A stretch of 36,195 nt of DNA from Alphaproteobacteria bacterium (GCA_023700945.1 JAMPXY010000010.1:1-36195); one strand, 5' to 3'; counted from the stretch's first letter, positions 868 to 17,495 are shown. Translations and numbers: made by a program. Notes: a model not told the origin generated them from the sequence alone.

Positions 868-3345
868 ATGTCTCCTGAAGATACTTCGCCTTTGGAAAAA
901 TTGGGCCAGTTAGTTGAGTCCGGGGGGCCGCTACAGATGTTCCCGGATGATGAACAGGATGAGAAAATCCTGCAGCAGATGAATATCCGTTTTCTCCACC
1001 GTCTGGTCGAGAATACACCGATGACCTCGAAGCTGGCCTACAAAATTTGTTCAGCGGTGGAGCAGGATCAACTGAGCCTGTCTGGCTTGATTGACGTCTT
1101 TCCGGCGCGCAGCGCTGAAGACAAGGCGCGCCAGAAACGCGTCAATAAAAAACTCAAAGACATTCGTGCCGAAATCAAACTGCACCAGAACGAAATGGAT
1201 CAGTTGCGGGAAACCCGCAAGGCCATGCCGGGCGGGACTCCTGACGCCCTTGATGATGCCATTGATGATCATAAGGACGAGATTGATGAGCTTGAAGAAA
1301 AGCTTGAGAAGCTCGAAAAATCCAAAGAACATAAACCTATTTACCCGGCGATTACCAAGCCTGCCGATCAGCGCGCCGTACGGCCACAGGATTGGGATGT
1401 GATGAAAAAATGGCTCGCGGCTGAAATTAAACGTGAGCCGCTGATTGATGATGAGGGCCTGTTTAGCAACCTTGAAAAATTAAGTGGTTATCTCGACCTC
1501 AAGGAAGATGAAAAAAGTCTTCTGACTTTGGCGATTTGCGCCGATGAGGATATTGGCTTGTCGCTATTTATTGATTCACTAGCATCACGCAAGGCTCGTG
1601 AAACTTGCGATGTTATGGGGCGGATGCTGGGTTTACCGCGGGCGCGCATTTCAGACATGCTGGAATTAACGGCACCCCTGCCAATGAAAGGGTTGGTTTT
1701 TCCAGAGATCGGTTTTGACGAGCATCACGAAGGTGAAGATTCGTATGTGCCGAGTGTTGATCAGATGCTGGTCAAATTATTGCGCCAGCCCGACATGACG
1801 ATTGAAAAGCTGACATCACGCCTAATTGGTGATCCGGTTACAACCGCCCTTGATTGGGACAAGGATTTTGCTCATCTGGGTGAGCGCGGCGCGCATATGC
1901 TCTCTGTTCTCATTGGCGGGATTGCCGCCCGCGATAAAGGTGTCAATATTCTGCTCTGGGGCCTTCCTGATACAGGAAAAACGGAAGCTGTCAAAGCTCT
2001 GGCAAAAAAGGCGGGTTTGCAGCTTTATCTAGTCGGGGAACGGGAAGATAGCGGTGATGAACCCTCCCGGCAAACCCGTATTCGGGCGGCTTTATTGGCG
2101 CAAGCCCTGTTGGCTGACAAGCAGGATGCCGTGATCTTGTTTGATGAGATGGAGGATTTGCTGCCTTCGGCCAATAACAGCATTTTTGCCCAGCCGGGCG
2201 ACGATAATAAACCCAGTGGTGCCAGCAAAGTGTTCTTAAACCGCTTGCTGGAAAACAATCTGACCCCGACTCTGTGGACAGCGAATGATCCGGAGCGCTT
2301 TCATGCAGCTGTGCGTCGCCGCTTCCGCTATTCGGTCGAGTTTGGCATTCCGCCTGTGGCTGTGCGTCAATCCTTGTGGACGTCGATTGCCGAGCGTCAC
2401 CAGCTCGACATGAGTGCGGAAGAAGCATTGAAACTTGCCAAAACATATAAAGCGCCACCAGGGATGATCAACACTGCTGTTCGCAATGCGGTGATTTCCG
2501 GTGATAAAAAATCTCTGGCTTTGAGTCTGACGGCATCAGCCGAACTGGTTTTTGGTGATCGCCAGACTATTGTCGTCAAAGATCGTGTCCCTGACCATTA
2601 CGATTTACGGTTGTTGAATGCCCAGATCGAAAAGGCCAGCATGAATATTCAGGACCTAAGCGGCAAGATTAAAGAACTGGGGCATCTTGATTTCAAGATG
2701 ATCCTGTATGGCCCTTCTGGCACAGGGAAATCAGGATATGCGGCTTATCTTGCACAGGCGCTGGATCTTGAGCCGATGCTGAGGAACGCCTCGGAATTTC
2801 TTGACAAGTATCAGGGAGAAACCGAGAAAAAAATTGCCGCCGCCTTTAAAGAGGCTGAGGAAGGACGTAAGCTCTTCATTCTCGATGAGGGTGATATCTA
2901 TGTACAGGATCGTACCCAGCTCGAGCACCAGTGGCAGATTTCTCAGGTCAATGAGATGCTGACAAGGATTGAGGAGCACCCTTATCCGGTGTTGTTGACG
3001 ACCAACTTGTATGACAATATCGATCCGGCTGCAAAACGTCGGTTCACTTTTAAAATCCATTGTCAGAACATGACGACCGATCAGGCGCGCCTAGCCTTCC
3101 AGATATTTTTTGACAAAGAGGCGCCGTCATCAATCAGCGGTGTGACCCATCTGGCACCGGCTGATTTCTCGGCGGTTAAAAACCAGATGCGTTTCATGGG
3201 TGATAATTTGCCTGCTGAACAGATACTCGATTTGCTCAAGACCGAAGCCAAGGAACGTCAGGTGAAAAAACCTTCGGGCTATAGCGGCTCTGAAAACGGT
3301 TTTGGGTTCAATCGGCGTGAGCCGGTTAAACCCACGGTGGGCTAA
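868..3345 (+). CDS. Tandem AAA+ ATPase with N-terminal coiled coil
   Basis: This 825-residue protein has two AAA+ modules. Residues about 85-155 are highly charged and probably form a coiled coil. AAA domain 1 has Walker A GLPDTGKT (365-372), Walker B VILFDE (422-427), a sensor asparagine in TAND (N473) and an RRRFR arginine-finger motif (483-487). AAA domain 2 has GPSGTGKS (615-622), LFILDE (669-674), TTN (N713) and RRF (724-726). Domain 2, with its WQISQVNEML stretch, resembles SpoVK/COG0464-type proteobacterial ATPases of unknown substrate. Both sites look catalytically intact. No signal peptide or membrane segment is visible, so it is probably cytosolic. The ATG at 868 has a GAGTGAGG ribosome site. 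It is the only plus-strand gene between two DUF4175-like genes, which hints at a role with that envelope cluster, but a direct link is inference. Confidence 0.85.
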   Translation: MSPEDTSPLEKLGQLVESGGPLQMFPDDEQDEKILQQMNIRFLHRLVENTPMTSKLAYKICSAVEQDQLSLSGLIDVFPARSAEDKARQKRVNKKLKDIRAEIKLHQNEMDQLRETRKAMPGGTPDALDDAIDDHKDEIDELEEKLEKLEKSKEHKPIYPAITKPADQRAVRPQDWDVMKKWLAAEIKREPLIDDEGLFSNLEKLSGYLDLKEDEKSLLTLAICADEDIGLSLFIDSLASRKARETCDVMGRMLGLPRARISDMLELTAPLPMKGLVFPEIGFDEHHEGEDSYVPSVDQMLVKLLRQPDMTIEKLTSRLIGDPVTTALDWDKDFAHLGERGAHMLSVLIGGIAARDKGVNILLWGLPDTGKTEAVKALAKKAGLQLYLVGEREDSGDEPSRQTRIRAALLAQALLADKQDAVILFDEMEDLLPSANNSIFAQPGDDNKPSGASKVFLNRLLENNLTPTLWTANDPERFHAAVRRRFRYSVEFGIPPVAVRQSLWTSIAERHQLDMSAEEALKLAKTYKAPPGMINTAVRNAVISGDKKSLALSLTASAELVFGDRQTIVVKDRVPDHYDLRLLNAQIEKASMNIQDLSGKIKELGHLDFKMILYGPSGTGKSGYAAYLAQALDLEPMLRNASEFLDKYQGETEKKIAAAFKEAEEGRKLFILDEGDIYVQDRTQLEHQWQISQVNEMLTRIEEHPYPVLLTTNLYDNIDPAAKRRFTFKIHCQNMTTDQARLAFQIFFDKEAPSSISGVTHLAPADFSAVKNQMRFMGDNLPAEQILDLLKTEAKERQVKKPSGYSGSENGFGFNRREPVKPTVG

Positions 3346-5581: not shown

Positions 5582-6511
5582 TCAAAGTCCGAGCTTCATA
5601 ACCGCAGCTGGAACTTTAGGTTCGAGATTGTAGAGGGCGCGCAGACCCTTGAATAATTCTTCATCAGTGCGTTGCAGAATAAAGTCAAATCCCTTGCGTC
5701 GCGCCAGCGTATCTATGGTCTCGATATGGTTTTTGAACTCTTTCTGATAGTGCCGGCGCAGCTGGGGGCTTTCTGCTTTTTCGAAATTTTTCTCACCTTC
5801 ATTGTTCAGGCCATAAAACAGCGTATCGCCTTTAAAATTGAAATCAATCAGCTGTGGATCGGCGACCATCACCAGCCAGCCGCTAATACCGCTCTGGCGT
5901 AAGCGATCAAGTGTCTGCTCAAGTTGGGTCACAGGCATCATGAAATCGCTGAACAATACGGCACAGCTATTATGGACCAGATGGGCGCGAATATGGGGGG
6001 TGCCGCTGTTATTATCCGGGATTTCCGCCATTTGGGTGGCTACCCACTCGGCGGCACGGCCTCCTTGAGTTAACCGAGTGCCTTCAAGCAGGCCCACACG
6101 TTCGTCATTGCGGGCGATGTGCTTGGCCAGTGCTAGCAGCATAATATCGGCGGCCTGACGCGGGGTATAAGGGGCCTTGCCGGATTCAAAATCCATCGAA
6201 GGGCGGCTGTCGCGCCAGAGGTAGAAATGCTGGCGAATTTCGGCTTCCTTTTCAACCACAATCGGTTCATCGCGGCGGGCGGAGAGGCGGGCGTGGATGC
6301 GGCGCGGATCATCACCATGGGCAAAGGCACGGGCTTCAAAAAATTCTGTGCCGGGGCCTTTGCGCTTCATCAGGCGCGGTCCATGTAGCGGCAGACCGCG
6401 GCTAATACGTTCGATATCGGGATGCTGGTGCAAGGGCAGCTTGCGGGCGGTTTCTTCGGCTTTGCCGAGTAGCCCGAACAAGGATGCCAGTTTTTGTCCA
6501 AAGACGCTCAT
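5582..6511 (-). CDS. DUF58 domain protein (vWA-like), MoxR cluster
   Basis: This 309-residue cytosolic protein belongs to the DUF58 family that accompanies MoxR ATPases. It shows the family signature GTEFFEARAFAHGDDPRRIHARLSARR (about residues 54-80), then a vWA-like fold. The expected metal-site motif DxSxS reads D101-S-R-P-S105, so the middle serine is replaced by arginine and the site is imperfect. No membrane segment is visible. The ATG overlaps the stop of the BatA-type gene as ATGA (6508-6511), and its own stop abuts the glutamine-rich gene, so it is translationally coupled. In other bacteria DUF58 proteins are proposed partners of MoxR in assembling or activating client complexes. The client here is unknown. 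Confidence 0.85.
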   Translation of the reverse strand: MSVFGQKLASLFGLLGKAEETARKLPLHQHPDIERISRGLPLHGPRLMKRKGPGTEFFEARAFAHGDDPRRIHARLSARRDEPIVVEKEAEIRQHFYLWRDSRPSMDFESGKAPYTPRQAADIMLLALAKHIARNDERVGLLEGTRLTQGGRAAEWVATQMAEIPDNNSGTPHIRAHLVHNSCAVLFSDFMMPVTQLEQTLDRLRQSGISGWLVMVADPQLIDFNFKGDTLFYGLNNEGEKNFEKAESPQLRRHYQKEFKNHIETIDTLARRKGFDFILQRTDEELFKGLRALYNLEPKVPAAVMKLGL

Positions 6512-8601
6512 GATCCATTCTCCAGCTTCATCGCCGGGCGAGGGGGGCGTTTATCCGGACCGCGATGACCACGCCGTTGGTAGAGTACAATTAATAAATC
6601 CAACAGCAGGAAGCCCAACGCTCCGCCGAGCAAAGGTCCGGTTAGATCGCGCTCCTTCTGGCCGATTTCGTAGGTTTTTCTTAAAACTCCATCGGGCATA
6701 GCGGGTAAGGGTTGTAGTGCTGTGATGGTGGGTGAAAGATTATGGGCTTGGCGCTGGCTTTCGTTGCCGTAGTAGCCGGGTGGGTGTTGCGGTCCCACCC
6801 GATTTTGTGCCATGGCTTCGGTCGTTAACGGACGGGTGGCCGCACCGGGGCTGCTGAAGCGGCCATAGCCATCAAGAATTTTGAGCGCGGGTAGAGACAC
6901 ATCATTATTTTCAAGTTTGCTCGCAACACCCTGACTACTCGCGACAACAGCGCGCATCATCTCTACAAAAGTGCCGGAGAGGGCAAGGTTGGACCATGAC
7001 GGATCGGCCGTCGTGTGAAAGAGAATGATCTGCCCTTTTCCGTGTTTTTTGGCTGTGACCAGAGGCGTGCCGTCCTGCAAGCGCGCCCACGTGTTATCAT
7101 CGTGATCGGCACCGGGCTGGGGTAATACTTCCTGTTTGATAGTGATGTGATCGGCCAGTGTAATTCCGGCGAATGGGGAGGTTGAGGCAAACGGCGCAAG
7201 TTTGCCTTCCTTGCCGCCTGAAACACTGCCGCCCAGTGTACGGCTGCCTTGTCGCAATTTCAGGGGCAGCAAGCTGCTATCGAGAATCTCCTGAGCGGCG
7301 AGGCGCGGGCCAGCAAAACGCAACAGAGTACCCCCCTCTTGTACCCACTGATCTATTTTTTGTGCCTGAGTTTTACCAACGGCCGCAGCATCAGTCATGA
7401 CCAGCACAGCCAATTTCCGTTTGAGCAATTCGTCAATCGGTCCTTGATGCAGGTCAACATAAGGGTTGAGGGCTTGATCAATATAATCAGATTCATTCAA
7501 GAGTGGTTGTGCCGCATTGCTCTGGGCGTTGGCAATCACCCCGACCGGGCGACGGCGCCAGCGTTCATCCAGTAAGACGGTGGCACCGGCGGTCTGTTCA
7601 TCCGCAATCGTAAGACGTGCCATTTCATTACTGATTTCTGGTGGCAGGTTAAACGTGGCTTGCGTCTCTTGGCTGCCGGGCTTAAAGGTGGCGGCGACTT
7701 GATCAATCGGTTTGCCGCTTTCATCAACGGCGGTTATCTGCACAATTTCTTCTGTCTGACTGTGACTGCGTTTGACGGTCACCGTCATTTTATCGGCGCT
7801 GGTCTCAGGCGGCAGCAACAGGCGAGCAGCTTCCGTCGGGGTGTCTTCCAAGACGGTTAGTTGACCCAGGTCCTTTAGTTTTTGTGACAAGGGCAATGCG
7901 GCCTGGTCGCTGAGGCCGTTACTAAGCCAGATAATAGCACTGGGCTTTTGCTCATGTATCTCATTCAAGCTTTCCAGCGCACTCTGACGATCAGCGGCCC
8001 ATGGCAAAGGCTTCATTTGCAAGGTGATCTGACGGGCTTCCTGCGCTGTCACTGGGCCGAGCACCTTGATCGGACTGCCATCGTCGGGGGCCGCCGTTGG
8101 CAGAATCATCAGGGAACGGCCTTCACGTTCGGCACGATTGATTAATTGCTGCATCTGCTCGCTGCGACTTTGCCAATGACGGGCCGCTGCCCAGCCATTA
8201 TCGATAACCAGCATGACGGGCCCTTGTCCGGGCAGGGGAGGCTGCGGGTTCCATTCGGGTTTGGTCAGGGCGCCGACCAACGCGGCCGAAGCCAGCGTAA
8301 TTGGGATGTATTGCCACCACGGAATACGCTTTGGGGTTTTTTCTTCGGATTCCAGCTTGAAGAGCAGACTTATACCGGGAAAAGCCTGCCGCAGCGGTTT
8401 GAGTGGAATGCTTTTCATGAGCCACCACAGGCCCACTACGGCCGGTACCGCCAGTAACATCCACGGTGCGAACGTTCCGGCGATGGGGCCTAGCGTATAA
8501 GCCTGCGCAGCCGTGGAAGTGGCGGCCGCTGCGGTGCCTGCCGCCAGTGTAAAGGCAGGGCGCAGTCTACTAGGGGCTGGGTGTGTAAGGGGCGTGCTCA
8601 T
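6508..8601 (-). CDS. BatA-type membrane protein lacking its usual DUF4159 domain
   Basis: The 697-residue product begins with an Ala-rich hydrophobic segment, then the BatA N-terminal region: APWMLLAVPAVVGLWWLMK (about 46-64), a basic loop, and a second membrane helix ending at TKPEWNP. A vWA-like domain starts at MLVIDNGWAAA; its metal-binding DxSxS motif is absent, as I recall for alphaproteobacterial relatives. A type-1 amidotransferase-like segment follows (LAVLVMTDAAAV, then WVQEGGTLLRFAGPRLA). The last membrane helix lies near LLGGALGFLLLDLLIVL, and the chain ends about 25 residues later. In the alphaproteobacterial relatives I recall, the chain continues into a DUF4159 domain. Here that domain is a separate gene at 11107-11889. 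Its start overlaps the upstream stop as TGATG at 8601. Confidence 0.85.
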   Translation of the reverse strand: MSTPLTHPAPSRLRPAFTLAAGTAAAATSTAAQAYTLGPIAGTFAPWMLLAVPAVVGLWWLMKSIPLKPLRQAFPGISLLFKLESEEKTPKRIPWWQYIPITLASAALVGALTKPEWNPQPPLPGQGPVMLVIDNGWAAARHWQSRSEQMQQLINRAEREGRSLMILPTAAPDDGSPIKVLGPVTAQEARQITLQMKPLPWAADRQSALESLNEIHEQKPSAIIWLSNGLSDQAALPLSQKLKDLGQLTVLEDTPTEAARLLLPPETSADKMTVTVKRSHSQTEEIVQITAVDESGKPIDQVAATFKPGSQETQATFNLPPEISNEMARLTIADEQTAGATVLLDERWRRRPVGVIANAQSNAAQPLLNESDYIDQALNPYVDLHQGPIDELLKRKLAVLVMTDAAAVGKTQAQKIDQWVQEGGTLLRFAGPRLAAQEILDSSLLPLKLRQGSRTLGGSVSGGKEGKLAPFASTSPFAGITLADHITIKQEVLPQPGADHDDNTWARLQDGTPLVTAKKHGKGQIILFHTTADPSWSNLALSGTFVEMMRAVVASSQGVASKLENNDVSLPALKILDGYGRFSSPGAATRPLTTEAMAQNRVGPQHPPGYYGNESQRQAHNLSPTITALQPLPAMPDGVLRKTYEIGQKERDLTGPLLGGALGFLLLDLLIVLYQRRGHRGPDKRPPRPAMKLENGS

Positions 8602-10904
8602 CAGTTTGGCCCTTCTGGCTTGATCACAGGGTCTTTGCGTCCAAAAAACGGCTTTTCGGATTGTCGCCGATAGGCAGAGGCCATTGCACTAAAGAAAGCC
8701 AGCATTAATGCCCAGTTAGGCACGAAGGGTTTTTTATCAATACCGCGCAGTACACTTTCGTTGGTCATGCGTATGCCCACCCACTCGGGCCCGGAGGCCG
8801 CCTGATTTGTTTCGCCCGGTTTAAGAGCTTGAAGTCGGGGCAGGACCAGAACTCCTGCAGGATCTGTCATGCGGGCAGTCAAACCGCCGCTACGGTCTGT
8901 GAGAGGTTTTAAAATATCAATTGTTGAAACTGTATTGACGAATTCACGCGGATTGGCCGGGCCAACATTGATATAAGTAATTTTGGCATTTTTGCCAGCT
9001 TGCTCGGCGCTGTACAGCCCCATTTCATTCGCTGGAATTTGCGTCTGCCAGATGCCGGGCTCACGAGCTGTGGGTGTCATAGTCATTGTCTTGCCCGAAG
9101 GGGTGCGCACGGTAACCGGGGTACTCTGATCGGCCATGGTTTGCTGGCTGATGATCAGATTCTTTTGCTGATGGGCTATGCGTAGGGCTTCTTCATCCAG
9201 CGCCGGGTTTTTCATGAGCCAGTGCGATGTTTGCAACAGCAGGCTGGCATAAGGCCCCGGCTTGTCAAAATCGCGCTGCCAGCGCCACAGACTATCCGAT
9301 TGCAGCATCGCCACACGGCCTTGTTCATGATGACTTAATATTAGCAGGGGTTTTTTATCGGCCCCCTCCATGACGATTTCTCCTTGGGCGCTTGTGACAT
9401 CCACGGAACGATACCAAGGCCCCCAGGTAGGCCCTTTTTTGTCTTGACCGGGCGAGTTTGCCCCCTCAAGACCACGCACGACCGGGTGACGGTGGCCGCG
9501 TGTACTGATTTGGGGTGTAAAAGTCTTTTCACTGATGTGGCCACTGGGAGCGGCAGGGAGAAGGGGCCCTAGTGCTGTATTATAAAGGCTGTGGTTGCCG
9601 GCGTATTCGGGGCCGGACATCACCAGCAGGGCGCCCCCTTCTTTGACGTAGCGCGCAATATTTTCAAGGTAGACGCTGGGGAGCAGGCTGCGGTTTTCGT
9701 AGCTGTCGAATATAACGAGATTAAATTTTTTCAAATTCTCGGCAAAGACCTCGTTCATCGGAAATGGTACCAGCGAGAATTCCTCACGCGGAATGTCATC
9801 CAGTTGATCGGGCAGCCGCTGAACCATAAAATGAACCGGATCAACATCCGGATCTGATTTCAGCAGTCCGCGCCACATCCGGGTATTCTGTGTAGGTGAG
9901 CCTGAAATGATCAGCACGCTTAACTTTTCGTGAATGCCTTCGACTGAAGCCGCGGCGCGGTTATTTACTGGCGTTGTTTCACCTTCAACCGGGGCCGTTT
10001 TGATCTCGATAATATTGGGACCGGCATGGGGAATATTCAGGCTGGCGCTGATAGTTTCCCCGGCCTTAACTTGACGGGTTTCAACCAACTTGCCATCGTG
10101 ATGAAGAGTGATGGTGATGGGTTCCCCGCGTGCGGGAACGGTCCCATCATCAACGATTTTGAATTTGATATCCTGCTTTTTATTAACGATACCAAAGCGT
10201 GACACTTCCTCGATTACGACGCGGCGATCATATTCGCCGCTGTGGCCAGAGATCAGGGCATGAACCGGAACCCCGTCGCCCGCGCTAAAGCTGCCGGTGA
10301 TGGTATCATGAACCTGTCCATCGGAAAGAATGAAGACACCCCCAACCCGGCTGCGTGGCACATCACTTAAATGATCGTCTATCGTGGAAAGCAGGCGTGT
10401 ACCGTCTGGTGCCATCCCGTCTTTTTCCCCGCCAGCGCGTACACTGCGGACATTGACGCCGGGCAGTGTTTTGATCTGGGCAACCAGCGCGTCATGAGCG
10501 GTTTGTGTTGTGCGGGTTCGGTCATTTAAAGACTGGCTCGGACTTTCGTCAGTGATCACTAGGACTTCTGTTGGTAGGACTTCACGCTCTTCTTTGACTT
10601 TCTGGTGATTGGCCAAGCCATAAAGCAGTACAGCGCCAGCGAAGGCACGCGGCAAGGCGCCCTTGGGTCCGCGTCTCCAAGCATAAAGACAAAAGAGCAG
10701 GTACAGTGCGCCCATACCACCGATGACACCGGGATGAAGGTGCGGATCAAATTCCGAAAACGATCGTTCGGTAACGATAGCTTTGGTTGTGGTTACGTTG
10801 GGGGCGGGGGGTGGGGTCTCTGTTTGCGCGAGGGCGCCTTGTGCTACACCGAATGCTAGTGTAGCAGCCGCGAAATTCGAGGCGAGTGATCGGCGCAAAG
10901 ACAT
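8601..10904 (-). CDS. Large membrane protein with vWA and amidotransferase-like domains (MoxR cluster)
   Basis: This 767-residue protein starts with a signal-like segment (cleavage near GALAQ, residue 26) and a Pro/Thr-rich linker. Two membrane helices follow (about 59-76 and 86-99). A vWA-like domain has an intact metal-site motif D119-E-S-P-S123 and a further aspartate in FILSDGQVHD. A beta-sandwich linker leads to a class-I amidotransferase-like fold (FNLVIFDSYENR, then YVKEGGALLVMSGPEYAG). I see no convincing Cys-His-Glu triad, so enzymatic activity is doubtful. A last helix lies near NWALMLAFFSAMA. It corresponds to the amidotransferase-like membrane protein usually found with alphaproteobacterial moxR-DUF58-DUF4159 genes. 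It is the first gene of a coupled four-gene unit. Confidence 0.82.
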   Translation of the reverse strand: MSLRRSLASNFAAATLAFGVAQGALAQTETPPPAPNVTTTKAIVTERSFSEFDPHLHPGVIGGMGALYLLFCLYAWRRGPKGALPRAFAGAVLLYGLANHQKVKEEREVLPTEVLVITDESPSQSLNDRTRTTQTAHDALVAQIKTLPGVNVRSVRAGGEKDGMAPDGTRLLSTIDDHLSDVPRSRVGGVFILSDGQVHDTITGSFSAGDGVPVHALISGHSGEYDRRVVIEEVSRFGIVNKKQDIKFKIVDDGTVPARGEPITITLHHDGKLVETRQVKAGETISASLNIPHAGPNIIEIKTAPVEGETTPVNNRAAASVEGIHEKLSVLIISGSPTQNTRMWRGLLKSDPDVDPVHFMVQRLPDQLDDIPREEFSLVPFPMNEVFAENLKKFNLVIFDSYENRSLLPSVYLENIARYVKEGGALLVMSGPEYAGNHSLYNTALGPLLPAAPSGHISEKTFTPQISTRGHRHPVVRGLEGANSPGQDKKGPTWGPWYRSVDVTSAQGEIVMEGADKKPLLILSHHEQGRVAMLQSDSLWRWQRDFDKPGPYASLLLQTSHWLMKNPALDEEALRIAHQQKNLIISQQTMADQSTPVTVRTPSGKTMTMTPTAREPGIWQTQIPANEMGLYSAEQAGKNAKITYINVGPANPREFVNTVSTIDILKPLTDRSGGLTARMTDPAGVLVLPRLQALKPGETNQAASGPEWVGIRMTNESVLRGIDKKPFVPNWALMLAFFSAMASAYRRQSEKPFFGRKDPVIKPEGPN

Positions 10905-11106
10905 ACCTGACCCTGTACATTATTATTATGATTTATATTATGGCTAACAATCTTGACCCCGACTGTCAACCTCTTTCCCGGTAAGTAATAATATTGCGGG
11001 GCATAACAGCCTTTGCACGGGAGTTGCTTATTTTAACATTTGTCCTTCCGGACATTATGCAATATAAACAGGCTATAACTTAGAAAATAAGAACAGGAAT
11101 CTGACC
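10905..11106. promoter_or_regulatory. Divergent promoter region between the two arms of the MoxR cluster
   Basis: This 202-base gap lies between the divergent starts at 10904 and 11107. On the minus strand a perfect TTGACA (complement of 10964-10969) is present, but the best -10-like TAATAT lies 23 bases away, so that promoter is uncertain. The plus-strand promoter is listed separately. Confidence 0.5.
11040..11068 (+). promoter_or_regulatory. Promoter of the DUF4159 gene with overlapping dyad
   Basis: TTGTCC (11040-11045) and TATAAA (11063-11068) are spaced by exactly 17 bases. TGTCC-TTCC-GGACA (11041-11054) is an inverted repeat overlapping the -35, a position suited to an operator. Confidence 0.5.
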
Positions 11107-11889
11107 GTGACCACCAGGCTTTCAGCTTTCAGGACGATGGTTCTGCCTGCGCTTTTGGCGCTCTCCCCCCTCTTTGCACAGGCGCAAGGTGCAGAGCCTG
11201 AGTCTGCTCCCAGCCAGACCGCGCAAGCGGTGCAACAGGCGAATAAAATTCATCTAGGGTACGTCAGAACAAGCTCGAGTGCGGTCAATAGCGATACGCA
11301 GCGCGGGCTGGAGGCTTTAGCGACTGAACTGACCAAGCGCACGGCGATCAAACCTAAAGGCGTAGTGGCGCTTGATGTCGAACGCGATGATCTGTCGTTC
11401 CATCAGTTTATCTATTGGCCGGTGACCCCGGATGCGCGACCTTTGTCTGAAGCGGCGCAGAAACGTGTCCAAAACTATATTGATAATGGCGGCGTGATTT
11501 TGTTTGATCTGCGCGATGCGGGGGGGGTAATGCGCGATCAGCGCGCGTTGCAACGGTTACTCTCGGATATGAATATCAAGCCACTGGTCACGATGGCTAA
11601 GGATCACACCTTGACCAAAACTTTTTATTTACTCTCCGGTTTGCCGGGTTCAAGCGCTCATGGGGCTCTGTGGGTCGAAGCCGCCGGGGCCAAGGGTACT
11701 GAATCTGTATCTACTGTAATCGTCGGTGACAATAACTGGGCGGACGCGTGGGCAGGTAAAACGGTGCTGCAAAATTCACGAGAGCGGGAAATGGCGCTGC
11801 GCGCAGGGATCAATATGGTGGTCTATGCCTACACAGGTAATTTCAAGGCTGACCCGATCCACGATGTGCTGGAACGGCTGAAACGCTGA
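11107..11889 (+). CDS. Stand-alone secreted DUF4159 domain protein
   Basis: GTG at 11107 is preceded by AGGA at 8 bases, and the 260-residue product begins with a signal peptide (cleavage near FAQAQ, about residue 26). The mature protein is a single DUF4159 domain. It shows IHLGYVRTSS, the ALDVERDDLSFHQFIYWPV block, YIDNGGVILFDLRDA, and the C-terminal REMALRAGINMVVYAYTGNFKADPIH signature. In the Alphaproteobacteria I recall, this domain is fused to the end of the BatA-type protein. Here it is detached, reads in the opposite direction and is predicted periplasmic. A bidirectional terminator follows. The function of DUF4159 is unknown. Confidence 0.85.
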   Translation: MTTRLSAFRTMVLPALLALSPLFAQAQGAEPESAPSQTAQAVQQANKIHLGYVRTSSSAVNSDTQRGLEALATELTKRTAIKPKGVVALDVERDDLSFHQFIYWPVTPDARPLSEAAQKRVQNYIDNGGVILFDLRDAGGVMRDQRALQRLLSDMNIKPLVTMAKDHTLTKTFYLLSGLPGSSAHGALWVEAAGAKGTESVSTVIVGDNNWADAWAGKTVLQNSREREMALRAGINMVVYAYTGNFKADPIHDVLERLKR

Positions 11890-11977: not shown

Positions 11978-12466
11978 TTACATGATTTGCGGACGTGGGA
12001 AATAGCAATAAATATGCCCACTGTCGTTATACCAGATCACATTGAAGGGGGGCATCTTGCAGGTGCTGGCAGGGTCAGCCTCGCGGCGTGGCTTGCAAAC
12101 CTCTTCAGCGAGCTTGGTTGTCAGAATGGCTTGCTCGGGGACTTCAACCCATTTGCCGCCGCCGGGAAGGGCATTGCCGGCCAGATCGTGGGTGATTTTG
12201 ACCTCGAGTTTGCCTGCTTTGGTGGTGCGCTCTTCGAGTTCACCACGACCATCTTGCTTGTTACAGCAGGAGCCACCTGATTTGTTCTTCATATGAACAA
12301 TAAATTCTTCGTAGGGCTTCAGCAGCAAGTTCTGCGGTGAGCCGTCTGCCGGCACGTGGGCCTGTGCGTTAAAGGCTGCGCTCAGGGCGAAGGCCCCGGC
12401 GATTGTTGCCAATGTTTTCTTCAGTGGTGACCATGAGCCGGACTCGGCTCTTGCGCTTTGTGACAT
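11978..12466 (-). CDS. Small secreted cysteine-containing protein of unknown function
   Basis: I choose ATG 12466 (162 residues) because GGGAG lies just upstream and the product then starts with a signal peptide cleaved near AQA-HV (residue 37). A longer frame to 12562 has no such support. The mature protein has an adjacent pair C67-C68 in SGGSCCNKQDGRGE, then C124, C136 and C154, and ends with a HIYCYFPRP motif. The CC-N/D pattern, the KWVEVPEQAIL strand and a terminal YC-F-P block resemble small periplasmic hypothetical proteins I recall from other Alphaproteobacteria; no function is known to me. Its start is 100 bases from the moxR stop, so co-transcription with moxR is plausible. Confidence 0.8.
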   Translation of the reverse strand: MSQSARAESGSWSPLKKTLATIAGAFALSAAFNAQAHVPADGSPQNLLLKPYEEFIVHMKNKSGGSCCNKQDGRGELEERTTKAGKLEVKITHDLAGNALPGGGKWVEVPEQAILTTKLAEEVCKPRREADPASTCKMPPFNVIWYNDSGHIYCYFPRPQIM

Positions 12467-12566
12467 TTTATTCTCCCTGTTAGCGACTTTTATAATTTTT
12501 ATCTTCTTCGGGTTTAACATTCTGGCAGAGGCCGTCAAGGGGCTTTCTCGCCAGTATGCCAAATGA

Positions 12567-13697
12567 TTACCCGAGTTTTTGTGTCAGGTGTTTCAAGACC
12601 TGATCAAAACTGGTGCCTTCGTTATATCCACGAATACCCATGCGATGCTCCAGCACCGGCTTGGCAATATCCAGAATGATTGATTCATCGGGGGCAAGGA
12701 CGCCATTTTTGAGGCTGTGTCCGTCCATCAGTGCCTTAGCTTTGGCGACCAGACCAAACGCAATCAGAGCCCGTGGCCCCGGACCCCAGCTGACATTTTC
12801 TGTGACCATTTTATCGCTGCTGCCTTGCGGGCGGGCACTGCGCACCAGCGAAACAGCTTTGTTGACTACTTTTTCTGACAGGGGCAATTTACGCGCAATC
12901 GCCTGTATAATCATCAAATCCATAGCGGTCAGAACTTTTTCGGCCTTGCAGGCGCGGTCTTTATCGATGCTGTTGGTGAAGTCGTAGCGAGCTTCGCCGG
13001 TTTGTTCGAATTTTTCTTTGAGGCTGAACAATTCTTCGACATCGGCGCTGGTGCCGGTGGCAGACGTCATAATCTTCTTTTCGGCATCAACGCCGGGATA
13101 GTCAACGCTGAGTTTGGTCAGGAAGCGGTCAGATTGGGCTTCGGGTAGTGGTGAGGTGCCCCCCTGATCAATCGGGTTTTGTGTTGCCATCACCAAAAAC
13201 GGGCGTCTTAGAGTATGGGTTTTGCCGGCAGCAGTGATCTGTTTTTCTTCCATTGCCTCAAGCATGGCTGATTGGGTCTTTGGCCCGGCACGATTGATTT
13301 CATCGGCCAGAATGAGCTGCCCGAAGAGGGGGCCCTGAATAAATTTGAATTCGTTGGTGGCGTTATCCCGCATCTCAATGCCGGTAAGGTCAGCGGGCAT
13401 TAGGTCAGGGGTAAACTGGATACGCTTAAAATCAAGTCCGGTCGCCTGCGCGATACTTTTGATCATCAGGGTTTTGGCCAAGCCCGGTAAGCCTTCGGAG
13501 AGAATATGTCCGCCCGCGACCATAGTGGTTAGCGCCATGGAAACAATGTAATCCTGATCCCAGACATCCTTGCTGACTTCCTCCTTGACGCGGCGCAATC
13601 GCTCGGAGGCCCATTCGATCCTCTCGGCCATTTTACGGGCATCATCTTTGCTGAGTGGCTGTCCGGCTATGCTGCCGGTGGATGGATCGTGAGTCAC
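12567..13697 (-). CDS. MoxR-family AAA+ ATPase
   Basis: GTG 13697 is preceded by AGGGAGAG, giving 376 residues. MoxR hallmarks are Walker A GLPGLAKT (69-76), Walker B LILADE (128-133) followed by INRAGPKTQSAMLEAMEE, sensor-1 asparagine in ATQNP (N174) and the arginine finger in EAQSDRF (R191). The lid domain follows, with RPQGSSD and a WGPGPRA motif near residue 310. The protein is soluble and cytosolic. MoxR ATPases act as chaperone-like partners of DUF58/vWA proteins. The DUF58 and vWA genes lie downstream on the same strand but are separated by the oppositely oriented DUF4159 gene and a terminator, so they probably form a second transcription unit. Confidence 0.93.
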   Translation of the reverse strand: MTHDPSTGSIAGQPLSKDDARKMAERIEWASERLRRVKEEVSKDVWDQDYIVSMALTTMVAGGHILSEGLPGLAKTLMIKSIAQATGLDFKRIQFTPDLMPADLTGIEMRDNATNEFKFIQGPLFGQLILADEINRAGPKTQSAMLEAMEEKQITAAGKTHTLRRPFLVMATQNPIDQGGTSPLPEAQSDRFLTKLSVDYPGVDAEKKIMTSATGTSADVEELFSLKEKFEQTGEARYDFTNSIDKDRACKAEKVLTAMDLMIIQAIARKLPLSEKVVNKAVSLVRSARPQGSSDKMVTENVSWGPGPRALIAFGLVAKAKALMDGHSLKNGVLAPDESIILDIAKPVLEHRMGIRGYNEGTSFDQVLKHLTQKLG

Positions 13698-13822: not shown

Positions 13823-14704
13823 TTATGTCCGGCTAGTGTAACAAGCTGCCAGCGCCACCATGACGCCGCCCGTGACGGCAATCATTCCGGCGGCGCTGAG
13901 GGCGGCCGGGATCCCCAGCCATAAAGGCGCGGTGGCGGCGAGACCATAACCGATCACGGCCATCAAAATGGCACAGGACGCACTGCAGCAGAGATACCCT
14001 GCTAAAGACGAAGTCAGCAGACGGGCACAAGCCGCCGGGCAGATAAACAAGGCGATAACCAAAATCGAACCCACCGCCTGGAAGGCGGCCACACAACCAA
14101 CAGCGCTTAGCGCGAGCAGCCCGGCACTGACCCATGCGGGCCGTAAGCCTTGACCTTGCGCCAGTAGCGGATCGAATGTGGCTAGTTTCAGTTCTTTGTA
14201 AAACACCAGCACCAGCATTGTGACGGCCAGCATGACAAAGAAAAGTAGCGGCATGTCTGCTGGCATGGTCTGCCACATATCTGGGGTGAAGATGCCCGGC
14301 CAGTAGGTGAGCTCAAGGGCGCCATAAAGCGCATGGTGGGCGTCCAAATGCACCCGGCCTCCGACTTTTTGTTCTAGCAGCAAGACACCCAAGGCGAATA
14401 AGGTGGTAAAGACAATGCCCATGATGGCCCCGGATTCAATGATGCGAACGCGCCGAATTAATGCCATCAGTGACACCGCCAGCAGGCAAGCTCCCAACGC
14501 ACCCAGCAACATCGGCAGCGCCGCAATCGTACCCGATACCAGATAGCCCGTAACAATCCCTGGCAGGACAACGTGGCTTAGGGCATCACTCATTAGAGCC
14601 TGTCGCCGCAGCACCAGAAAGGCGCCGCATAGGCTGCATATGATGGCGGCCATTGTGGCGATCAGCAGGGCGGGCAAATCAATTTGCAGGATCATATCGT
14701 TCAT
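13823..14704 (-). CDS. Mn/Zn ABC transporter permease (TroD/SitD-like)
   Basis: This 293-residue membrane protein has about eight hydrophobic helices and belongs to the ABC-3 metal permease family. Family marks are FLVLRRQALMSDALSHVVLPGI near the N-terminus and GSILVIALFICPAACARL around residues 210-230. It is the last gene of the importer operon, and its ATG overlaps the upstream permease stop as ATGA (14701-14704). The two permeases differ enough to form a heterodimer, as in TroCD or SitCD. No terminator is visible between this gene and moxR. Confidence 0.9.
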   Translation of the reverse strand: MNDMILQIDLPALLIATMAAIICSLCGAFLVLRRQALMSDALSHVVLPGIVTGYLVSGTIAALPMLLGALGACLLAVSLMALIRRVRIIESGAIMGIVFTTLFALGVLLLEQKVGGRVHLDAHHALYGALELTYWPGIFTPDMWQTMPADMPLLFFVMLAVTMLVLVFYKELKLATFDPLLAQGQGLRPAWVSAGLLALSAVGCVAAFQAVGSILVIALFICPAACARLLTSSLAGYLCCSASCAILMAVIGYGLAATAPLWLGIPAALSAAGMIAVTGGVMVALAACYTSRT

Positions 14705-15564
14705 GGGCGTCTCCGCCAGTGGATCAGGCCATGAGCGGGGGCGATGATAAAGCTTATGGCCAGAAACAAGGCGGCGATCAGCACAATCATGGCTCCGGCG
14801 GGCATATGGGCGATATAGGCCGAGATCAAGGCACCACTAGCGGCACTGATTCCGCCCGTCAAGGGGGCCAAAATCAGCATCAGCGACAATCTGTCGGTCC
14901 ACAACCGGGCTGTCGCCGCCGGGATGATCAGCAAAGCGATCACCAGAATAAGACCTACGGTTTTTAAACCAGTGCAAACCACCGCGAGCATCAAGGCCAT
15001 CAGCAACATATCTAGCCAGCGCAGAGACAGACCGCGGGCTGCAGTAAAAATAGGATCAAAGCACAATAGTGTTAGCTCTTTGCGCAGTATCAGGATTGCC
15101 GCTATCACTGTCAGGGCCATGACCGCTGTGACACTGATTTCCTCGCGCGTGAGCGCTGCGGTTTGCCCGAGCAAGAAACTGTCCAGTCCAGCGCGGCTGC
15201 CTGTGCCCAAGGTTTGTATATAGCTGAGCAATACGATTCCCAAGCCGAAAAAAGAACTCAAGATCACGCCAATGGCGGTGTCCTCGCTCAGGCGACTATG
15301 GTCTTTCAGCCACTGTACGGCACCGGCCCCGATAATTCCGCTACAGGCGGCACCGATCAGCAGGGTCGGTAGGTGGCGGCCATCGTCAAGGCCCAGCGCC
15401 AGCGCTGCCAGAAAACCGAGGGCGATTCCGGGCAAGGTGGCGTGGCTGACAGCATCACTGAGCAGGGAACGCTTGCGTAATAACAAGAAAACACCGGTTA
15501 ACCCAGCGGCTATCCCCAGCACACCGGTACCAAGAAGAACAATCAGGGTGTTGTAGGAAATCAC
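14701..15564 (-). CDS. Mn/Zn ABC transporter permease (TroC/SitC-like)
   Basis: This 287-residue ABC-3 permease has FLLLRKRSLLSDAVSHATLPGI near residues 26-47 and VGLILVIALLIIPAATARL near 203-221. Those are the same two family signatures as in the following gene, and about eight helices are visible. The start is GTG 15564, overlapping the ATPase stop as GTGA. It should form the inner-membrane channel with the neighbouring permease. Confidence 0.9.
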   Translation of the reverse strand: MISYNTLIVLLGTGVLGIAAGLTGVFLLLRKRSLLSDAVSHATLPGIALGFLAALALGLDDGRHLPTLLIGAACSGIIGAGAVQWLKDHSRLSEDTAIGVILSSFFGLGIVLLSYIQTLGTGSRAGLDSFLLGQTAALTREEISVTAVMALTVIAAILILRKELTLLCFDPIFTAARGLSLRWLDMLLMALMLAVVCTGLKTVGLILVIALLIIPAATARLWTDRLSLMLILAPLTGGISAASGALISAYIAHMPAGAMIVLIAALFLAISFIIAPAHGLIHWRRRP

Positions 15565-16292
15565 GATGCCACCATCAGCAGTCGCCCGCCATAAGCGCGC
15601 TGCAGATGTTCGGGTGTCATTACCTCTTTGACGGGTCCGCTGGCGATGGTGCGGATGTTGAAGGCAATCGCATCATCAAAATAATCAGTAACGGTTTGCA
15701 AGTCGTGATGGACGCAGATTACTGTGCGGCCCGTAGCTTTCATGCCTTTAAGTATATCAAGAATAGAAGCTTCGGTCGCGGCATCGACCCCGGCAAAAGG
15801 TTCATCCATCAAATAAAGGTCGGCTTTTTGCGCCAGTGCCCGCGCCAGAAAAACCCGCTGTTGTTGTCCGCCTGATAACTGTCCGATGGGCCGTTTAGCC
15901 AGATCGGCGAGGCCTACCTTTTCGAGGTAAGTCAGTGCTTCCGTGAGGTGGCGGCGGCGTACCGGACGGCCCCAGCCGATATCGGCATAAAGTCCCATGG
16001 CCACGACATCAAGCGCGCTGGCTGGAAAATCCCAGTCAACGGCGGTGCGTTGCGGCATGTAAGCAACTTGTTTACGGCTGCGGCGGTCAGCCTTGTGTCC
16101 GAGCAGTTGAATATCGCCGCTACTGATCGGGACTAGCCCCATCACCGCCTTGATCAGGGTTGATTTACCTGCGCCGTTGGGGCCGATGATGGCAGTGATG
16201 CGACCACTGGCGGCTTCAAGACTGGCATTATCCAAAACTCGTTTGGTTCCGTAATCAACACACAAATTCGTTACACAAAGGGCGGGGGTCAC
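15561..16292 (-). CDS. Mn/Zn ABC transporter ATP-binding protein (TroB/ZnuC-like)
   Basis: This 243-residue ABC ATPase has Walker A GPNGAGKST (37-45), a Q-loop in YMPQRTAVDWDFP, the signature LSGGQQQRV, Walker B LYLMDEPFAGVD and the switch histidine in CVHHD. The VDWDFP segment after the Q-loop is characteristic of the Mn/Zn importer subfamily. The GTG start lies 7 bases after the binding-protein stop. Confidence 0.93.
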   Translation of the reverse strand: MTPALCVTNLCVDYGTKRVLDNASLEAASGRITAIIGPNGAGKSTLIKAVMGLVPISSGDIQLLGHKADRRSRKQVAYMPQRTAVDWDFPASALDVVAMGLYADIGWGRPVRRRHLTEALTYLEKVGLADLAKRPIGQLSGGQQQRVFLARALAQKADLYLMDEPFAGVDAATEASILDILKGMKATGRTVICVHHDLQTVTDYFDDAIAFNIRTIASGPVKEVMTPEHLQRAYGGRLLMVAS

Positions 16293-16299
16293 AATGATG

Positions 16300-17277
16300 T
16301 CACTCCATGGCTAACGAAAGTTTGCCTTGTAAGCCCTGTGGCGGGGTGGATGAACCGAGAGCGCGACTGATGATAGTGGCGTTGTGATCCATCATGCCGA
16401 TATAGGTGCCTTCATAACTACCAGCCTTACCCATGGCATCAGAATATAAAGTGCCACCGATCTTGACATGATGGCCACGGGCTGCAGCCCCTTCGATCAG
16501 GGCGCGGACATTACGGTCAGAGACTGAACTTTCAATAAAGACTGCCGGGATTTTGCGTGTGACCAACAATGTTACCAGAGTCTCGATTTGCTTGAGTCCG
16601 GCTTCACTCTCGGTTGAAATACCTTGTATCCCTAGAACCTCTATACCGTAGGCCTCACCGAGATAGGCAAACGCGTCATGGGCTGTCACCAGTATGCGCT
16701 CCTGTTTGGGTATCTTTTGAAATGACTCGCGAATATAGATATCCAGTCTTTCAAGGTCGGCATCATAGCGATAGGCGTTGTTAATATAGGTATCGCGATG
16801 TTCGGGATGTAACCCACCTAAGGCTCTGGCGATTCCATCACTGGCAGAAATCCAGTTTTGTACGTTCATCCAGATGTGCGGATCGTGGCCGTTGGGGCCG
16901 TCTTGCAGACGGTGAGGTGGCAGCATGGCCGCAATGGCAAAAACCGGTTTTTCCCGCGCCAGTGTTTCCAGCAATTCGACCATCTGTCCTTCAAGATGCA
17001 GACCATTGTAAAAGATAATATCGGCCTGCTTCAGTTTTAGGATATCGCTGCGGGTGGGGCGGTATAAGTGCGGATCGACCCCTTCCCCCATCAATGATTC
17101 AACCCGTGCCAAGTCGCCGCTGACCGCTCGCACAGCATCCGCTATTTGCGCTGTGGTGGTCACGATCTGCGGGCGCTTATCGGCGTCACCTGCGGCGGCC
17201 CAGGAGTGAACATTAAGGCGCAGCCCGAATCCGGCTAAAAGGGCGCAACAAAATAATGGGATCAGAATTTTCTTCAT
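16300..17277 (-). CDS. Periplasmic Mn/Zn-binding protein (TroA-like)
   Basis: I start at ATG 17277 (325 residues) because the product then opens with a normal signal peptide (MKKILIPLF, cleavage near WAAA-G, residue 30). A longer frame to 17313 would bury it. Metal ligands line up with TroA: H70 in DPHLYRP, H134 in DPHIWM, H200 in TAHDAFAY and D280 in YSDAMG. That His-His-His-Asp set is the TroA type, reported for both zinc and manganese. It differs from the His-His-Glu-Asp of the manganese proteins PsaA and MntC. The long histidine-rich loop of zinc-specific ZnuA is absent. Gene order (binding protein, ATPase, two permeases) equals troABCD. No regulator gene is nearby. Confidence 0.9.
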   Translation of the reverse strand: MKKILIPLFCCALLAGFGLRLNVHSWAAAGDADKRPQIVTTTAQIADAVRAVSGDLARVESLMGEGVDPHLYRPTRSDILKLKQADIIFYNGLHLEGQMVELLETLAREKPVFAIAAMLPPHRLQDGPNGHDPHIWMNVQNWISASDGIARALGGLHPEHRDTYINNAYRYDADLERLDIYIRESFQKIPKQERILVTAHDAFAYLGEAYGIEVLGIQGISTESEAGLKQIETLVTLLVTRKIPAVFIESSVSDRNVRALIEGAAARGHHVKIGGTLYSDAMGKAGSYEGTYIGMMDHNATIISRALGSSTPPQGLQGKLSLAME

Positions 17278-17495
17278 ATATGTAATTATAGCTACTAAGT
17301 TTAGCCATGGCAATACTTCTGTCGTGGGGATAAAGTTTGCTGGGGTTGTTAATATATAAACTATTGATATTTAATATGAATTTTGTCATTCAAGAAGTTT
17401 TGACAAGGTTGGGGCTATTTTCCAGATGTTCACACTTTATTAAACATACCTGCGTAAAGTGGGGACAGAATAATAGGGAAAAGCGGAGTTAAAAT
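17278..17495. promoter_or_regulatory. Divergent AT-rich control region with dyad (metal importer / small gene)
   Basis: This 218-base divergent gap holds an AT-rich block (about 17349-17392). It contains the perfect inverted repeat TGAAT-N6-ATTCA (17377-17392), a candidate operator for a metal-responsive regulator. On the plus strand TTGACA (17400-17405) is present, with no good -10 at the usual distance. Assignments are tentative. Confidence 0.4.

What the first reader, a model, noticed from the sequence alone, without database searches (positions are those of the whole stretch)
6508..11889. BatA and DUF4159 domains split into two genes on opposite strands
Seen: the BatA-type protein (6508-8601) ends about 25 residues after its last membrane helix with no DUF4159 domain. 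A DUF4159-only gene with a signal peptide sits at 11107-11889 on the other strand. Known: in the alphaproteobacterial relatives I recall, one chain of about 900 residues carries both. Inference: the membrane segment preceding DUF4159 in the fused form became a cleavable signal peptide after fission, freeing the domain into the periplasm.
Basis: partly seen in the sequence, partly recalled or inferred. Interest (0 to 1): 0.6.

Follow-up and report, generated by a model that had tools for sequence, protein, structure and literature searches.

The report
Split, inverted second BatA/DUF4159 envelope operon
A Micavibrio-like bacterium carries, besides the usual alphaproteobacterial operon in which two envelope proteins (BatA and DUF4159) are made as one chain, an old second operon in which they are separate genes facing opposite ways, and comparing the two suggests that the usual single chain is itself normally cut in two by signal peptidase.

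Summary
BatA (6508-8601, minus strand, 697 aa) ends about 19 residues after its last membrane helix. DUF4159 (11107-11889, plus strand, 260 aa) has its own signal peptide.

The fission idea is partly right. The same genome also holds a fused 907-aa BatA-DUF4159 gene on another contig, and a same-genus closed genome carries both on one chromosome, so the split pair is a paralogue beside the fused gene. The split form is old: the same divergent layout (DUF4159 back-to-back with GAT-BatA) recurs in eight genera of two families, and all 11 genomes with split BatA have split DUF4159, two of them on different contigs.

The DUF4159 tree nests the split copies inside the order's fused ones (98-100% bootstrap), which favours fission over an ancestral separate gene. 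BatA does not contradict this, but the neighbouring GAT gene does, so the operon may be a mosaic.

The claim that a membrane segment "became" cleavable after fission is not supported. Fused proteins across Alphaproteobacteria already carry a signal-peptidase-like site just before DUF4159 (34/59 strict sites against 4 expected). Most likely both forms yield a membrane BatA plus a free periplasmic DUF4159. Cleavage is predicted, not shown.

The parts
6508..8601 (-). BatA-type membrane protein of the split operon, 697 aa: two N-terminal helices, degenerate vWA, beta and GATase-like regions, one C-terminal helix, basic tail; no DUF4159
11107..11889 (+). DUF4159-only gene, 260 aa, predicted periplasmic, on the opposite strand
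11107..11184 (+). predicted signal peptide (residues 1-26, AQA|Q)
   Evidence: own rule, not SignalP
10905..11106 (.). 202-bp AT-rich divergent region between DUF4159 and GAT start codons, promoter-like hexamers both ways (6 found, 1.9 expected in the scanned region), largely conserved in the same-genus genome
11931..11948 (.). hairpin GCCCCGC-ATTG-GCGGGGC flanked by A5 and T4, terminator-like in both directions, between the convergent DUF4159 and 194-aa genes; the second genome has a hairpin there with a changed but still paired stem
   Evidence: read by eye; not listed by the scan
8601..10904 (-). GAT gene, 767 aa, membrane protein with GATase1/vWA-like regions; partner of BatA in both operon types
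5582..6511 (-). DUF58 protein, 309 aa
3375..5585 (-). DUF4175/TIGR02302-type protein, 736 aa, Gln-rich; linked to the split operon type
12567..13697 (-). MoxR-type AAA+ ATPase of the split operon, 376 aa
11978..12562 (-). 194-aa exported-looking protein between MoxR and DUF4159; found clearly only in this genus

Best explanation
The window holds a second (paralogous) MoxR/DUF58/BatA/GAT/DUF4159 envelope operon in which BatA and DUF4159 are separate genes. The ancestral state in Alphaproteobacteria is one chain: BatA with its helices and large periplasmic part, a last helix back to the cytoplasm, a short basic loop, a signal-peptide-like segment, then DUF4159 in the periplasm. I propose that signal peptidase I cuts the fused chain after that segment (AxA|Q/E/D), so the working products are a membrane-anchored BatA and a free periplasmic DUF4159. 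In the split operon the break lies in the cytoplasmic loop, so the two genes give the same two products without needing that internal cut. DUF4159 now stands back-to-back with GAT-BatA over a shared divergent region of about 200 bp, which would keep the two in step while letting their amounts be set separately. DUF4159 and BatA probably act together with GAT as the periplasmic and membrane part of a MoxR AAA+ chaperone-like system for envelope integrity, as reported for the fused operon RL3499-RL3502 of Rhizobium leguminosarum. Shown by computation: paralogy, conserved layout, co-occurrence, tree position of DUF4159, site statistics. Inferred: cleavage, partnership, function.
For: Fused copy in the same genome and both copies on one chromosome of a same-genus genome, so not a binning artefact. 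Same divergent layout in window, G001, G022, G035 (another family), G010, G021, G574, G570, G575, G613. Split BatA and split DUF4159 co-occur in 11 of 11 genomes, including G624 and G626 where they are on different contigs. DUF4159 split clade nested in the order's fused clade, 100/97 and 98/93; alternatives rejected. Break point maps to fused residue about 650, between the last BatA helix and the segment before DUF4159. Strict AxA|[QED] site before DUF4159 in 34 of 59 representative fused proteins, 4.0 expected (max 10 in 500 shuffles), against 0, 0 and 2 of 59 after the other three helices of the same proteins. MoxR of the Rhizobium operon is important for membrane integrity and cell shape (PMC3893208, PMC5118466 citing Vanderlinde 2011).
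Against: No peptide evidence of cleavage in any fused protein, and the site rule is mine, not a trained predictor; the wider rule ([AVST]xA) leaves 12 of 59 without a site, and some Rhizobium sequences have only ..LHA|. The BatA tree as drawn puts the split clade with other alphas (98/96), although the order placement is not rejected (p 0.31). GAT strongly rejects the order placement (p 3e-5) and favours Hyphomicrobiales, while BatA rejects Hyphomicrobiales (p 0.01): the operon may be a mosaic or the deep trees may be misled. The window genome is an 83%-complete draft.
Confidence: 0.62

Rival explanations
1. Mosaic assembly: the GAT-BatA-DUF58 backbone came from another alphaproteobacterium (old transfer), and a DUF4159 gene derived from the resident fused gene was added on the opposite strand. 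This BatA and this DUF4159 were never one chain.
For: GAT tree joins Hyphomicrobiales and rejects the order; BatA tree leans to other alphas (98/96) and the identity pattern agrees (split-alpha 36.8% above split-order 32.3%; for DUF4159 the reverse, 37.4 against 41.1). DUF4159 lies inverted and upstream, not downstream of BatA, so in-place fission alone does not give this layout.
Against: BatA does not reject the order placement (p 0.31 and 0.26) and rejects the donor that GAT suggests (p 0.01); DUF58 undecided (p 0.26). All parts of the split operon form single clades, as expected of one old unit.
Confidence: 0.25
2. The split state is ancestral and the fused gene arose later; the second operon is a relic of the separate state.
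For: Standalone DUF4159 genes exist in other Pseudomonadota classes and a few alphas, next to MoxR and DUF58.
Against: Those standalone domains are a far subfamily (branch about 4 substitutions per site to all BatA-linked ones), and the split clade sits inside the fused clade, so this would need several fusions at the same point.
Confidence: 0.06
3. The internal AxA motif of fused proteins is not cut; the segment is a true fourth helix and DUF4159 stays tethered, so fission freed the domain.
For: No experimental cleavage data; some fused proteins lack a strict site.
Against: Site statistics far above shuffles and above other helices of the same proteins; short hydrophobic core with a basic n-region, and Q as the commonest residue after the site, like the split signal peptides.
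Confidence: 0.3
4. Assembly or binning artefact (contig from another organism, or frameshifted fused gene).
For: Draft genome of 143 contigs.
Against: Same layout in a closed same-genus chromosome, CP066681/G001, which also carries the fused gene; opposite strands cannot come from a frameshift.
Confidence: 0.01

Closest known systems
RL3499-RL3502 operon of Rhizobium leguminosarum (MoxR of the MRP subfamily; envelope integrity, cell shape)
   Same: Gene set MoxR, DUF58, BatA, DUF4159, GAT; an R. leguminosarum chromosome (L113) shows the four-gene fused form, 937 aa for BatA-DUF4159. I equate it with RL3499-RL3502 by gene content and memory; the original paper was not held.
   Different: There BatA-DUF4159 is fused and the order is MoxR-DUF58-BatA::DUF4159-GAT; here split, DUF4159 inverted, order MoxR, GAT, BatA, DUF58, DUF4175, and it exists beside a fused operon.
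Bacteroides aerotolerance (Bat) operons and other MoxR/vWA systems (RavA-ViaA, NorQ-NorD)
   Same: MoxR AAA+ next to DUF58 and BatA-type membrane proteins; chaperone-like roles are reported for several MoxR systems (PMC3893208 text and PMC9976466 abstract).
   Different: No DUF4159 in those as far as I recall; BatA here has a DNGW-type degenerate MIDAS position.
Haliangium ochraceum Hoch_4089, PDB 4i66
   Same: Fold of the window DUF4159 model, E 8e-12, TM 0.80 on the target.
   Different: 21% identity; function not known.
Bradyrhizobium fbcH (cytochrome b/c1 precursor cut by signal peptidase; two genes in relatives), from memory
   Same: A membrane protein and a periplasmic domain joined by an internal cleavable signal peptide, with split counterparts.
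   Different: Unrelated proteins; cleavage there is experimental, here predicted. Not found in the held library.

Membership tests
DUF4159 (PF13709) | Score above the Pfam gathering cut-off over the full domain | tested here: met
   127.4 bits against 25.9, positions 1-201 of 202
BatA N-terminal family (PF07584/TIGR02226) | N-terminal double-transmembrane domain above cut-off | tested here: met
   29.5 against 25.9; TIGR02226 33.1 against 23.05
Alphaproteobacterial fused BatA-DUF4159 protein | Both domains on one chain | tested here: not met
   Separate genes on opposite strands in the window; met by the paralogue on C30
BatA-linked DUF4159 clade | DUF4159 groups with BatA-fused domains, not with the standalone MoxR-adjacent subfamily | tested here: met
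Sec/SPase I exported protein | Basic n-region, hydrophobic core, AxA site, no lipobox Cys | tested here: met
   (own rule); SignalP not available
MoxR/BatA envelope operon (RL3499-RL3502 type) | MoxR, DUF58, BatA, DUF4159, GAT genes together | tested here: met
MoxR/BatA envelope operon (RL3499-RL3502 type) | Loss causes envelope defects | not testable with these tools
   needs gene removal in a cultured relative
Catalytic class I glutamine amidotransferase | Conserved Cys nucleophile | tested here: not met
   No Cys among invariant or nearly invariant DUF4159 columns

The most novel reading that the evidence does not exclude
The fused BatA-DUF4159 proteins found across Alphaproteobacteria are polyproteins: signal peptidase cuts an internal signal peptide and releases DUF4159 into the periplasm, and the split operon of the window's order is the natural uncoupled version, with dosage set by a divergent promoter.
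Probability: 0.5. Interest if true: 0.62.

Novelty: new variant of a known kind. Interest (0 to 1): 0.47.

Why it matters
The operon is widespread in Alphaproteobacteria and, in Rhizobium, important for envelope integrity, yet how its parts work is unknown. If the large fused protein is normally cut in two, topology models, tagging experiments and complementation designs for it need to change, and the question is directly testable by a blot. The split operon gives a natural control in which the two parts are already separate and still inherited together.

Tried and rejected
Recent fission in this lineage: rejected by conservation in eight genera. Mis-binning: rejected by the same-genus closed genome. 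Ancestral standalone DUF4159: disfavoured by the tree. A first automatic AxA scan picked the last BatA helix instead of the following segment and was replaced; a shuffle test with a loose rule was weak (71 strict sites of 107 against 46 expected), so a stricter rule that includes residue +1 was used on 59 representatives. No paper mentions DUF4159 in the held library. The fold search of BatA gave only vWA and GATase-like regions of other proteins at low TM, no function. MoxR tree uninformative; DUF58 inconclusive.

Full report
Observation. Between and around them on the minus strand lie MoxR (12567-13697), a 194-aa exported-looking protein, GAT (8601-10904), DUF58 and a DUF4175/TIGR02302 protein.

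A fused paralogue exists. Searching the window's own genome for DUF4159 gives two places: the window, and contig C30, a 907-aa fused BatA-DUF4159 gene inside the operon MoxR-DUF58-BatA::DUF4159-GAT.

Distribution. In the class sample 136 of 241 genomes have DUF4159, nearly always in a frame of about 900-1000 aa, and named alphas show one gene order. Standalone genes of other Pseudomonadota and two alphas are a distant subfamily next to MoxR and DUF58. In the window's order, split copies occur in about a dozen of 142 genomes. Ten loci share one layout: DUF4159 back-to-back with GAT, followed where the contig reaches by BatA, DUF58 (absent in G010) and DUF4175, in genera g1, g22, g10, g21, g23, g14 and g388 of the window's family and g34 of another family. 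All 11 genomes with a full split BatA have a split DUF4159; in G624 and G626 the two are on different contigs, yet both are kept. The pattern is patchy (absent from complete g23 genomes G023 and G572), so losses or transfers have occurred.

History. Careful DUF4159 tree: split copies one clade (100/99), inside the order (100/97), with the fused copies of families f1/f7 (98/93). Holding the split clade among other alphas costs 49-51 log units (p 0.0003; p 0.004). Keeping all fused order copies together without the split clade is borderline (p 0.059). BatA: split clade drawn with other alphas (98/96), but joining it to the order is not rejected (p 0.31; p 0.26), and joining it to Hyphomicrobiales is (p 0.01). 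GAT: split clade with Hyphomicrobiales, order placement rejected (p 3e-5). Several of these groupings were chosen after seeing trees, and deep alphaproteobacterial trees are prone to rate and composition bias, so the p-values are guides. Long-branch rows were left out of the careful trees. Fission of an order-type fused gene is the simplest reading for DUF4159; whether this BatA was its other half is not settled.

Junction. Alignment puts the end of the split BatA at fused residue about 650, in the cytoplasmic loop, and the mature start of DUF4159 near the end of the hydrophobic segment. That segment in fused proteins looks like a signal peptide: basic loop, short core, AxA, then usually Q (own fused: WASTVLLLVFLCNINTAYA|ETPED). 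The strict motif is found in 34 of 59 representatives against 4.0 expected and 0-2 of 59 at the other helices; the wider motif in 47 of 59 against 19.9.

Mechanism. AlphaFold2 gives DUF4159 a confident GATase1/flavodoxin-like fold close to Hoch_4089 (4i66) with no conserved Cys, so binding rather than amidotransferase chemistry is likely. BatA has a vWA-like region with DNGW in place of DxSxS. A MoxR ATPase with vWA partners suggests a chaperone-like machine; the Rhizobium operon is important for membrane integrity and morphology (PMC3893208, PMC5118466). I infer that DUF4159 is the periplasmic partner of BatA/GAT. The divergent 202-bp region and the two-way terminator-like hairpin make DUF4159 its own transcription unit next to the BatA operon; regulation is inferred.

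Verdict. Real, old and functionally coherent; a new variant of a known operon, with a testable class-wide prediction about the fused protein. Cleavage itself has not been shown.

Noticed in passing
868-3345: Double-AAA ATPase of 825 aa, convergent with the DUF4175 gene and also present at the same place in the same-genus genome (L050); only weak likeness to IteA/CDC48-type models.
   Followed up: partly
11978-12562: 194-aa exported-looking protein with several Cys between MoxR and DUF4159, clear only in this genus; the start in the relative (162 aa) suggests the true start lies about 32 codons downstream.
   Followed up: partly
L225, L226 (G624, G626): Split DUF4159 genes that lie away from their GAT-BatA pair (L263, L264), with no other operon gene near.
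   Followed up: partly
L266:3-1933: In G567 the split-type BatA is broken into two frames at a contig start and no split DUF4159 was found; decay or assembly error.
   Followed up: no
8601-10904: GAT of the split operon groups with Hyphomicrobiales, in conflict with DUF4159 and BatA of the same operon.
   Followed up: partly
13823-17313: ABC metal-type transporter genes (two permeases, ATPase, binding protein) directly upstream of MoxR; judged from the translations only.
   Followed up: no
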